Shown here piece by piece: positions 1 through 7,970 of a stretch of DNA of 55,527 nucleotides. The notes beneath the pieces are model-generated. The model saw nothing but the letters and a program-made list of their open reading frames with translations. It did not search any database and was not told the origin of the DNA. The position numbers and the translations under genes are program-made. The stretch spans positions 1-55,527 of the forward strand of contig NZ_FODY01000029.1 of assembly GCF_900110485.1 (NCBI RefSeq). The letters are read 5' to 3'. The DNA is from Propionispora vibrioides (lineage in GTDB: Bacteria > Bacillota > Negativicutes > Propionisporales > Propionisporaceae). Numbering within the stretch: the first letter of the stretch is position 1; each line of letters opens with the position of its first letter.

Positions 1-2052
1 TCCTCGAATATCACGGCAGGTAACAATGTCAATATTACGGCAAAAGCAGACGATGTCACGTTGCAGGATACGAAGATCAATGCGAAAAACGTGAAAATCG
101 ATGCGGAACGTGATATTAACCTCACGTCTGCTCAGAATGTGGAGCAAACCGACAGCAAATCCGACAGCTCCTCCTGGTCGCTGGGAGTCAGCCTGAATGG
201 TGGAGTCTTTGGCAATGCCAGCAAAGGAAACAGTAATGGCAACGGTACGGTAGTTACCCACAGTGGTACGGAAATTAATGCAACCGACACAGTAGACCTC
301 CATTCTGACAGAGATACCAATATCATCGATTCCCAGGTAAAAGGAAAAGAAGTAATCGCCAACGTTGGTCGAGACTTGAATATAGCCAGCCAGCAGGACA
401 TCGACAACTATACGGAGAAGAGCAGTAGCAGCGGCATTGGCTTTAGCACCGGTCCGTCAGGCGGCGTAACCGGCTCGGTCAGCAAAGGTAAAATCAACTC
501 TGAATACTCGAGTGTTACTGAACAGGCAGGTATTTATGCCGGCGAAGGTGGTTTCGATATAACGGTAGGCAAAAACACCGACCTGAAAGGTGCGGTCATT
601 GAGGCACCAGCAGGTAAGAATAAGCTTTCTACCGATACTCTTACGTACTCGGACATTGAAAACCATGCCGATTACAGCGCCAGCAGCGTTGGGGTAAATC
701 TGGATACCAGAAAAAATGCCAAATATAATGAGTATGGAATTACTCCTGATATTGGAGTCTCAGCTAAGGGTGATGCAAGCAGTACGACTAAATCTGCTAT
801 ATCGCCGGGAACAATTGAAGTCAGGAGTAATCCTGATCAAGATTTGAGTGGATTAAGTCGTAGCACTGATCAAACATTAAATTCGTTAGGAAAAATATTT
901 GATAAGAAAAGTGTCCAGGAAAAACAAGAACTAGCTAAGTTATTTGGAGAATTGGCTTACGAGGAAGTTCATAAAATTTCTGATAGAGCTAAAGATGCTG
1001 CTAAAAATGAGTTGAAGAAAGCTAAAGAAGATAAGAACTCTACACCTGAGCAACTTGCGGCATTACAAGCTAAAGTAGATTCCTGGGATGTAGGTGGAGC
1101 TAATAAAATAGCACTTCATGCCTTTGTTGGTGCAGTAATGGCAGATATAGGCGGAGGAAATGCCTTATCAGGAGCTGTTGGTGCTGGATTGAATGAAGCA
1201 GTACAAAAAGAATTAGCAGAGAAATTTAAAGATAATCCTGATCTTCACCAATGGGCGAGTGCTATAATCGGTTCTGCCGCCGCCGCAGTTATCGGTGGAG
1301 ATGCTCAAAGTGGAGCAAGTACTGCTGTTAGTGGAACAAAAAATAATGCACTTAATACCACACAACAGGAACGATTTGCAGATAGATTGAACCAGGCAAT
1401 TAACTCAGGTTCTTCAATAGAGATTGTCTTGGTAATTGCAGATTATGCACTCTTAGATTCTGCACAAAACTTAGTTTGGAATGATACTGGAGCAGAACAA
1501 CAGACTATTGACGCCTTTAATGCGGCTGCGAGAGCATTAGGTATTACCGATTATTTTGCTTATAATGAAAATGGTAATCTCCATGATAATTTCGTAGCAT
1601 TTAAAGATGCATTGATAGCTAACGTTCAAACAGTTGATTCTTCAACATTAATTGCGGCTGGTGCAGTGGCTACTGTGACAATTGCTGGAGTCGTATTGTT
1701 CAAATATAGGGGTAGCTTGGTTAGAGCCGGGGCTGGTGCGGGAGGTGCTTGGAGTCAGGCAACTTTCCAATCTGATCAGCTATTACAACGTCATCTTGCT
1801 GATCATGCTGCTACCGAATGGGGTGAAGCCTTAACTGCAACTCAATATATACAAAAGGCTCGAAGTCTTTTAAATAGTAATGTCGGAGGAGAAATTGAGG
1901 GTTTTACAAATAGTCTAGGTTGGACTTTCAGATATAATACTGCGACAAATGAGTTTGCAATAGGGTCACCACAAGGGACTATTTCAACACTTATGAGGCC
2001 TGCAGATGGTATGAATTATTGGCTGGAACAGGTAGCAAAGTATAAATGGTAA
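1..2052 (+). CDS. CdiA/FhaB-type exoprotein, C-terminal part with toxin domain (5' truncated)
   Basis: The reading frame is open from base 1, so the gene begins outside the window and only the last 683 codons are seen. The first ~270 residues are the beta-helical haemagglutinin repeats of two-partner-secreted exoproteins (many INA, NVK, DINLTS-type turns). A middle segment rich in Gly/Ala (about residues 365-455, ending near TKNNALN) resembles the pretoxin region that carries VENN in classical CdiA. A hydrophobic stretch follows (around residues 560-580). The last ~90 residues (RHLADHAATEWGE, FRYNTATNEFAIG, MNYWLEQ) have the pattern of BECR-fold CdiA-CT RNases, which typically cleave tRNA; that activity is inferred. 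The DNA becomes clearly AT-richer after about base 700, as expected for exchangeable toxin tails. It would be exported through an outer-membrane TpsB partner, which is not in the window. The immunity gene follows after 15 bases. Confidence 0.85.
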   Translation, partial: SSNITAGNNVNITAKADDVTLQDTKINAKNVKIDAERDINLTSAQNVEQTDSKSDSSSWSLGVSLNGGVFGNASKGNSNGNGTVVTHSGTEINATDTVDLHSDRDTNIIDSQVKGKEVIANVGRDLNIASQQDIDNYTEKSSSSGIGFSTGPSGGVTGSVSKGKINSEYSSVTEQAGIYAGEGGFDITVGKNTDLKGAVIEAPAGKNKLSTDTLTYSDIENHADYSASSVGVNLDTRKNAKYNEYGITPDIGVSAKGDASSTTKSAISPGTIEVRSNPDQDLSGLSRSTDQTLNSLGKIFDKKSVQEKQELAKLFGELAYEEVHKISDRAKDAAKNELKKAKEDKNSTPEQLAALQAKVDSWDVGGANKIALHAFVGAVMADIGGGNALSGAVGAGLNEAVQKELAEKFKDNPDLHQWASAIIGSAAAAVIGGDAQSGASTAVSGTKNNALNTTQQERFADRLNQAINSGSSIEIVLVIADYALLDSAQNLVWNDTGAEQQTIDAFNAAARALGITDYFAYNENGNLHDNFVAFKDALIANVQTVDSSTLIAAGAVATVTIAGVVLFKYRGSLVRAGAGAGGAWSQATFQSDQLLQRHLADHAATEWGEALTATQYIQKARSLLNSNVGGEIEGFTNSLGWTFRYNTATNEFAIGSPQGTISTLMRPADGMNYWLEQVAKYKW

Positions 2053-2067
2053 ATTCAGGAGGGTAGA

Positions 2068-2490
2068 ATGAAAATTATTAGAGATTGTTGCCCTTGTTGT
2101 GGATATCCAACATTACAACCACGTGATCACCCCCGAATGCCTACTTTTGAAATATGTGTTTTATGTAGGTGGCAAGATGACGGACAGACTGATTTGGACG
2201 CTGATAAAGTTTATGGTGGTGCAAACGGAAGATATTCTTTAACAGAAGCAAGAGCTAATTTTAGAAAGTATTTAGTGAAGTATTCACCAGAAACTGATAC
2301 ACGATTAGTCCCAAGAGATTGGCCGGAAGAGACAAACATAAAAAAAGCTTTGATTAGGCTATATGAAGAAAGTCAGACACTAAGTAATCAATCCATATCC
2401 GATGAAATATGGGCAGAAATTCTTAACCTTGAAAATAGGTTAGATGAAATTACTCGTAAAAAAAATGAACAGGCGATAAGAAAAAGATGA
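2068..2490 (+). CDS. CPCC-family cysteine-rich protein, probable immunity protein
   Basis: A 140-residue protein starting 15 bases after the exoprotein stop, behind a good GGAGGG ribosome site. The N-terminus holds the CPCC zinc-binding pattern: CCPCCG at residues 7-12 and CVLC near residues 31-34, followed by WQDD. CPCC-domain proteins are known as immunity proteins in polymorphic toxin loci, and the position directly behind a CdiA-type toxin tail supports that role. The C-terminal half is helical and charged (about residues 85-140) and may be the part that recognises the toxin. AT-rich like the toxin tail, so the two probably moved together. The immunity function is inferred from family and context; no toxin-binding residues can be assigned. 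Confidence 0.75.
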   Translation: MKIIRDCCPCCGYPTLQPRDHPRMPTFEICVLCRWQDDGQTDLDADKVYGGANGRYSLTEARANFRKYLVKYSPETDTRLVPRDWPEETNIKKALIRLYEESQTLSNQSISDEIWAEILNLENRLDEITRKKNEQAIRKR

Positions 2491-7754: not shown

Positions 7755-7970
7755 ATGAGTAATTCTGTGGAAAGAGGCCATAAGGTAGAAGTAAAGTGGG
7801 ATCATTGTCAATGCTGTTGCCCAAAGTGTGAGCATAAGTATTCACACCATTGTCCTAAGTGTCATCATGAATGCCATGTAGAATGGGATAAATGCCCGCA
7901 TTGTGGTCATGATTTTGACCATCATAAAAAGTGTCCTAAGTGTGAACACGAATGGGATGATTACTACTAA
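7755..7970 (+). CDS. Small Cys/His-rich metal-binding protein
   Basis: 71 residues behind AAAGGAGTGTTCT. It contains a CQCCC run and three CPxC knuckles separated by His-rich stretches (CPKCEHKYSHHCPKCHHEC, then KCPHCGHDFDHHKKCPKCEH). About 14 Cys and 12 His in 71 residues indicate high capacity for Zn or other soft metals. No signal peptide. It might be a metal store or chaperone; no known family was recognised. The upstream ~200 bases are AT-rich and likely carry its own promoter. Confidence 0.7.
   Translation: MSNSVERGHKVEVKWDHCQCCCPKCEHKYSHHCPKCHHECHVEWDKCPHCGHDFDHHKKCPKCEHEWDDYY

What the first reader, a model, noticed from the sequence alone, without database searches (positions are those of the whole stretch)
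1600..2490. CdiA-type toxin tail and CPCC immunity gene with an AT-rich, exchangeable signature
The tail ends in a BECR-like RNase pattern (RHLADH, FRYNTATNEF, MNYWL) and is followed by a CPCC-type gene. The composition shift after ~700 suggests tail replacement. The pretoxin site has TKNNALN in place of VENN. Contact-dependent inhibition in a Firmicute with an outer membrane is little studied.
Basis: partly seen in the sequence, partly recalled or inferred. Interest (0 to 1): 0.5.

Follow-up and report, generated by a model that had tools for sequence, protein, structure and literature searches.

The report
CdiA RNase toxin with CPCC immunity
This is the toxic end of a bacterial contact-killing protein together with its antidote gene, a relative of a pair whose structure is already solved in E. 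coli, here in a Firmicute with an outer membrane; the same pair also rides on phage head proteins, which is the more interesting part.

Summary
Window 1-2052 is the 3' end of a cdiA-like gene cut by the contig edge. Its last ~90 residues are a BECR-fold RNase domain, and 15 bp downstream lies a 140-aa CPCC gene. They match chains A and I of PDB 8EY4, the E. coli O32:H37 CDI toxin-immunity complex; the toxin model (pLDDT 94) superposes on 8ey4_A at Z 12.1. A published abstract on that complex reports a colicin D-like, non-specific RNase needing EF-Tu and an immunity protein holding Fe3+ by cysteines; activity and neutralisation here are inferred from it.

Corrections: the AT shift at ~700 marks the start of the pretoxin domain, shared by a paralogue with another tail, not the exchange point. 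Homology to that paralogue ends at TKNN (1336-1347), the usual junction in this class. tRNA specificity is not implied. The pair is not peculiar to CDI: in 380 Negativicutes genomes 20 of 23 toxin matches have a CPCC gene 14-114 bp downstream, on CdiA, phage portal or stand-alone genes. New member of a known kind; whether this copy is a full cdiA or a silent cassette is unresolved.

The parts
1..2052 (+). 3' part of a cdiA-like gene (two-partner secretion exoprotein), 5' end cut by the contig edge
   Evidence: open ORF 683 aa; PF13332 1.3e-34
628..1347 (+). Negativicutes-type pretoxin domain, ending in the junction motif TKNN (1336-1347)
   Evidence: alignment A4; found in 84 of 380 class genomes; TKNN in 35 of 50 distinct modules; DNA homology with paralogue C16 ends at 1346
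1348..1629 (+). variable linker of the tail
   Evidence: position between junction and shared segment; little likeness to L006/L007 by eye
1630..1779 (+). hydrophobic segment shared by 7 of 47 tails, several with unrelated toxins behind it; probable entry/membrane-passage element (inferred)
   Evidence: profile search of tails
1780..2049 (+). BECR-fold RNase toxin domain of the E. coli O32:H37 CdiA-CT family
   Evidence: 8ey4_A 3.8e-5 / 5.3e-27; AlphaFold2 pLDDT 94.3; VIA-align Z 12.1 to 8ey4_A, 6.1-7.0 to colicin D
2057..2063 (+). Shine-Dalgarno-like AGGAGGG of the CPCC gene
   Evidence: sequence
2068..2490 (+). CPCC-type immunity gene (CdiI), 140 aa: four-cysteine domain plus a ~70-aa predicted helical C-terminal extension
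   Evidence: PF14206 1.7e-15; 8ey4_I 2.1e-6; full-length extension shared only with L006 and L007 among the 10 aligned; helices in a weak model

Best explanation
A contact-dependent growth inhibition toxin-immunity pair of the E. coli O32:H37 kind, in a Propionispora species (Negativicutes). If joined to a secreted CdiA head, the tail would be released at the TKNN junction, pass the inner membrane of a neighbour with help of the segment 1348-1779, and its last ~90 residues would degrade RNA in the cytosol, probably needing EF-Tu. The CPCC protein, folded round one metal ion held by four cysteines, would bind the toxin and keep the producer and its kin safe. Shown here: sequence and fold membership, gene pairing, exchange at TKNN. 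Inferred from the relative: RNase activity, EF-Tu need, Fe3+, neutralisation. Inferred from CDI in general: contact delivery and release.
For: Toxin and immunity each match one of the two chains of one solved complex, titled in the PDB copy as a CDI toxin-immunity complex of E. coli O32:H37; the model superposes at Z 12.1, rmsd 2.0 over 86 residues, and next on colicin D, with CdiA NC101 and P. aeruginosa CdiA further down. Two histidines, a glutamate and a threonine (H5, H9, E13, T70 of the domain) are invariant in 8 of 8 rows across CdiA, RHS and phage portal proteins; the four cysteines C8, C11, C30, C33 are invariant in 10 of 10 CPCC rows. A CPCC gene lies 14-114 bp downstream of 20 of 23 toxin matches in 380 genomes, while CPCC genes are rare there (44 matches in 38 of 380 genomes). 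Pair distances correlate (Mantel r 0.70, 28 pairs, 0 of 9999 permutations; 0.60 for 22 non-redundant pairs). 24 of 44 CPCC matches have no toxin match, against 3 of 23 toxins without CPCC, the asymmetry expected of an antidote.
Against: No activity was measured for this pair. Whether this copy has a secreted head is unknown: the contig ends at base 1, and the two closest relatives of the tail lie in headless cassettes. The immunity model is poor over the CPCC domain (mean pLDDT 70.8, pTM 0.44). The tryptophan behind the first helix histidine in 8ey4_A is a leucine here; which tryptophan the abstract means is not known. In A5, whose row L117 is cut short and whose phage rows are more diverse, neither histidine is listed as invariant. 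Identity to 8ey4_A is only 28-29%.
Confidence: 0.85

Rival explanations
1. The copy in the window is a headless, normally silent cassette kept as a spare tail, not the end of an expressed full-length cdiA; only the CPCC gene would be expressed, as a spare immunity.
For: The two nearest tail relatives sit in tandem arrays of truncated modules: G019 has a long cdiA plus four short modules, G048 five or more short modules; the array modules show no start codon with a clear Shine-Dalgarno near their beginning (by eye). The contig ends at base 1, as expected where near-identical repeats begin.
Against: The own genome has four CdiA heads (C16, C49, C50, C52), of which three lack an assembled 3' end, so a head for the window's tail is available. 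No contig-end overlap joins them either way.
Confidence: 0.45
2. The toxin is a sequence-specific tRNase like colicin D.
For: Same fold as colicin D, Z 6.1-7.0; another CdiA tRNase (NC101) in the same list.
Against: The much closer relative (Z 12.1) is reported as a non-specific RNase (PMC12585627).
Confidence: 0.25
3. The CPCC protein is not the immunity but a zinc-ribbon regulator or bystander.
For: CPCC proteins also occur without the toxin (24 of 44 matches); the domain looks like a general four-cysteine ribbon.
Against: Solved toxin-CPCC complex of relatives, pairing on four unrelated carrier types, correlated distances.
Confidence: 0.03

Closest known systems
E. coli O32:H37 CdiA-CT / CdiI (PDB 8EY4, 8EY3; PMC12585627)
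   Same: toxin fold and sequence, CPCC immunity with four cysteines
   Different: host class; TKNN junction; immunity twice as long (140 aa against 65-70 in the PDB chains) through a C-terminal extension; 28-29% identity
Colicin D tRNase domain
   Same: BECR fold (Z 6.1-7.0)
   Different: 14-16% identity; different immunity; colicin delivery; specific for tRNAArg (as stated in PMC12585627)
Phage BECR (PBECR) domains fused to portal or MuF proteins (PMC5512222, passages read)
   Same: BECR RNase at the C-terminus of phage head proteins; here of the same family as the window's toxin (phrog_15528 portal, 4.9e-14)
   Different: no Pfam model matched the toxin domain; CPCC does not occur in that paper's text
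MuF polymorphic toxins of temperate phages (PMC5576092, passages read)
   Same: toxin-immunity modules shared between phage heads and another polymorphic toxin family
   Different: their shared instance is with MafB; portal fusions with this pair were not among the passages I read
Orphan cdiA-CT/cdiI modules (PMC9086364, passages read)
   Same: headless tails with immunity genes at cdi loci
   Different: there they typically start at the junction motif; in G019 and G048 the cassettes carry the whole pretoxin and a further 66-427 residues upstream of it

Membership tests
CdiA-CT/CdiI O32:H37 pair | toxin domain homologous to 8ey4_A | tested here: met
   E 3.8e-5 single, 5.3e-27 profile; Z 12.1
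CdiA-CT/CdiI O32:H37 pair | CPCC immunity protein with cysteine metal site encoded next to it | tested here: met
   8ey4_I 2.1e-6; four cysteines invariant in 10 of 10 rows; the metal itself not testable
CdiA-CT/CdiI O32:H37 pair | colicin D-like catalytic centre with a histidine | tested here: inconclusive
   H5, H9, E13, T70 invariant in 8 rows; residue-by-residue match to the catalytic residues of 8ey4 was not made
CdiA-CT/CdiI O32:H37 pair | RNase activity that needs EF-Tu | not testable with these tools
   needs protein
CDI (CdiB/CdiA two-partner secretion) | haemagglutinin-repeat exoprotein with pretoxin domain and a conserved junction motif at which homology ends | tested here: met
   PF13332; TKNN junction, homology with paralogue ends at 1346; the literal VENN is absent and no PT-VENN Pfam hit was seen, but the motif varies by lineage
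CDI (CdiB/CdiA two-partner secretion) | TPS head and CdiB partner for this copy | tested here: inconclusive
   contig edge; genome has four heads and two strong CdiB matches elsewhere, none joined to the window
CDI (CdiB/CdiA two-partner secretion) | contact-dependent inhibition | not testable with these tools
   needs competition assay
BECR-fold RNases | N-terminal helix then four-stranded meander | tested here: met
   model order H9-24 H30-42 E49-53 E59-63 E68-72 E78-82 H87-98, pLDDT 94.3; colicin D and CdiA NC101 among structural matches; definition of the fold in PMC3482391 (passage)

The most novel reading that the evidence does not exclude
One toxin-CPCC cassette circulates between CDI systems, RHS proteins, phage capsid proteins (portal, minor capsid) and stand-alone chromosomal genes, so that a prophage's CPCC gene could protect its host against neighbours' CDI, and a CDI immunity could blunt an incoming phage carrying the toxin in its head.
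Probability: 0.25. Interest if true: 0.6.

Novelty: new member of a known kind. Interest (0 to 1): 0.4.

Why it matters
It extends a recently solved CDI toxin-immunity type to outer-membrane Firmicutes, where the passages I read list CdiA-like proteins but no tested CDI (PMC8510554). It suggests a function (immunity) for the phage family phrog_6332, listed as unknown, and for the C-termini of a phage portal family, and it makes cross-protection between CDI and prophages directly testable.

Tried and rejected
Composition as an exchange mark: rejected, since the paralogue on C16 shows the same drop at the same domain border (GC3 0.54 in the body, 0.26 in the pretoxin, 0.30 in its unrelated tail; window 0.53, 0.21, 0.25; the C16 body stretch was not a whole number of codons, so its GC3 is rough, though its GC of 0.49 against 0.41 agrees), and low GC runs on to about 6.4 kb in the window.

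Idea that the window must be an orphan because only two CdiB and two heads exist: dropped when one search showed four heads (C16, C49, C50, C52). C17's end with a cdiB overlaps exactly with both C50 (95 bp) and C52 (115 bp), a branch in the assembly.

Family libraries: no NCBIfam match up to E 1 for the isolated tail or the immunity; no Pfam match that covers the toxin domain. PADLOC was never run successfully (one search failed on a frame error and was not repeated).

Trees of toxin and CPCC: the Negativicutes CdiA toxins group with the phage minor-capsid toxin L059 with support 0.79 only, and the CPCC tree does not agree at depth; no claim on direction of transfer is made.

First genome-contig scan with A3 found no relative; the second, with the pretoxin alignment A4, found 16 loci. 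Literature searches for CPCC as immunity found nothing on it, but a search by strain name found the abstract, so absence from those searches was not absence from print.

Full report
What is there. Window 1-2052 is one open frame of 683 aa that runs in from the contig edge; the window is contig C29 of a 58-contig genome from its first base. It has haemagglutinin repeats (PF13332, 1.3e-34), and the next gene, 2068-2490, is a 140-aa CPCC protein (PF14206, 1.7e-15) with a good Shine-Dalgarno. The named motifs are in place. A genome of the same genus, G001, is identical over 3.6 kb to Propionispora sp. 2/2-37 (locus L086 = L065), so the host is a Propionispora species; that this is an outer-membrane Firmicute (Negativicutes) is recalled and fits the named relatives (Pelosinus, Sporomusa, Pectinatus).

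What the pair is. The last 90 residues match PDB 8ey4_A (3.8e-5; 5.3e-27 with a profile of eight relatives), and the CPCC protein matches 8ey4_I (2.1e-6) and 8ey3_A (4e-6). One search gives the entry title: contact-dependent growth inhibition toxin-immunity protein complex from E. coli O32:H37. An AlphaFold2 model from eight sequences has mean pLDDT 94.3 and the order helix, helix, four strands, helix. VIA-align puts it on 8ey4_A at Z 12.1 (rmsd 2.0, 86 residues), then colicin D at 6.1-7.0, BrnT 6.0, P. aeruginosa CdiA 5.5 and CdiA NC101 5.5. The only account found, an abstract (PMC12585627, read whole), reports a colicin D-like but non-specific RNase that needs EF-Tu, and an immunity protein with a unique fold holding Fe3+ by cysteines. 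PMC11630599 (one passage) lists O32:H37 as an RNase. The four cysteines are invariant in 10 of 10 CPCC proteins aligned. The window protein differs by a ~70-aa C-terminal extension, shared in full only with L006 and L007 in that alignment and modelled as helices (weak model overall).

Exchange point. The genome holds a complete cdiB-cdiA on C16. DNA homology between C16 and the window runs over 471-1346 at 74% and stops at TKNN; the tails behind it are unrelated. The composition drop lies instead at the start of the pretoxin in both genes. The pretoxin profile is found in 84 of 380 class genomes. Of 61 modules in the loci I held that reach the junction, 50 are distinct, 35 of them with TKNN; 47 have closed tails of 60 aa or more and fall in 31 C-terminal clusters. 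Seven of these 47 tails, the window's included, share a hydrophobic segment in front of several different toxins, a likely entry element (inferred).

Cassettes. The two nearest relatives of the tail (72% and 71%) lie in tandem arrays: in G019 one long cdiA and four short pretoxin-tail modules, in G048 several short modules with near-identical beginnings. Orphan modules are known from other cdi loci (PMC9086364, passages). In the window's genome four heads are present, three on short contigs without a 3' end, so this copy's head remains open.

Pairing and carriers. In 380 class genomes the toxin profile gives 23 matches in 22 genomes. With my CPCC profile, 20 of 23 have CPCC directly downstream; with Pfam PF14206 also 20 of 23, 14-114 bp away. 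The three without: G202 (lipoprotein-like protein), G289 C151 (150 bp from the contig end) and G026 (weak partial match). Two of the 23 (L049, L053) have stop codons inside the match. In two (L041, L052) toxin and CPCC are one frame. PF14206 has 44 matches in 38 of 380 genomes, 24 of them without a toxin match; I looked at 12 of these 24 (one, L150, lies at a contig end), and in L125 the CPCC gene carries what looks like the first residues of the stand-alone toxin, as after deletion of the toxin. Carriers: CdiA (window, L006, L007, and a Rhizobium plasmid), RHS (a Vibrio plasmid), phage portal (PF06381 in L060, L116, L119) and phage minor capsid protein (PF06152 in L059), and stand-alone genes in what look like housekeeping operons. 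All 7 distinct viral-contig loci have the CPCC gene downstream (L060 is the G126 prophage again, L120 repeats L059), as do all 5 loci fetched out of 10 phage and plasmid records matched (the Listeria toxin is only a 3' fragment). The window tail matches phrog_15528, a portal family, at 4.9e-14, and CPCC is phrog_6332, function unknown. Toxin and CPCC distances correlate over 28 pairs (r 0.70; 22 non-redundant 0.60; 0 of 9999 permutations each), which shows inheritance as a unit but says little about direction.

Known or new. CdiA-like proteins in Negativicutes are noted in PMC8510554 and PMC3482391 (passages); BECR domains on portal and MuF proteins in PMC5512222 (passages); modules shared by MuF and another toxin family in PMC5576092 (passages). 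The pair here is therefore a new member of a known kind. What I did not find in print with the searches made is the same BECR-CPCC pair on CDI, RHS, phage head and stand-alone genes.

Noticed in passing
L043, L044, L047 (1450-1981 region); L045, L050: Stand-alone toxin domain plus CPCC gene directly behind yajC-like and before a 5-formyltetrahydrofolate cyclo-ligase-like gene (other copies behind a release-factor-like or plsY-like gene), with no delivery domain: looks like a domesticated toxin-antitoxin pair (gene names recalled from sequence, not from a call).
   Followed up: partly
L125 1483-1914: Two CPCC genes in tandem behind the same yajC-like gene, one starting with residues like the start of the stand-alone toxin, as if the toxin had been deleted and the antidote kept.
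   Followed up: partly
L041 1312-1914, L052 1486-1947: Toxin domain and CPCC domain in a single open frame next to portal gene remains.
   Followed up: no
L119 110-2638: Phage portal protein with both a NUDIX domain and the toxin domain.
   Followed up: no
L109 (G048:C1:1204000-1223500): Headless cdiA cassettes that all begin with nearly the same few residues after a stop, suggesting a fixed duplication border.
   Followed up: no
G000 contigs C17, C49, C50, C52 (L019, L020, L121, L122): Three CdiA heads about 93% identical in their first 0.8 kb; the cdiB at the end of C17 overlaps exactly with both C50 and C52.
   Followed up: partly
window 7755-7970: Small 71-aa protein made of repeated CxxC/His motifs.
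   Followed up: no
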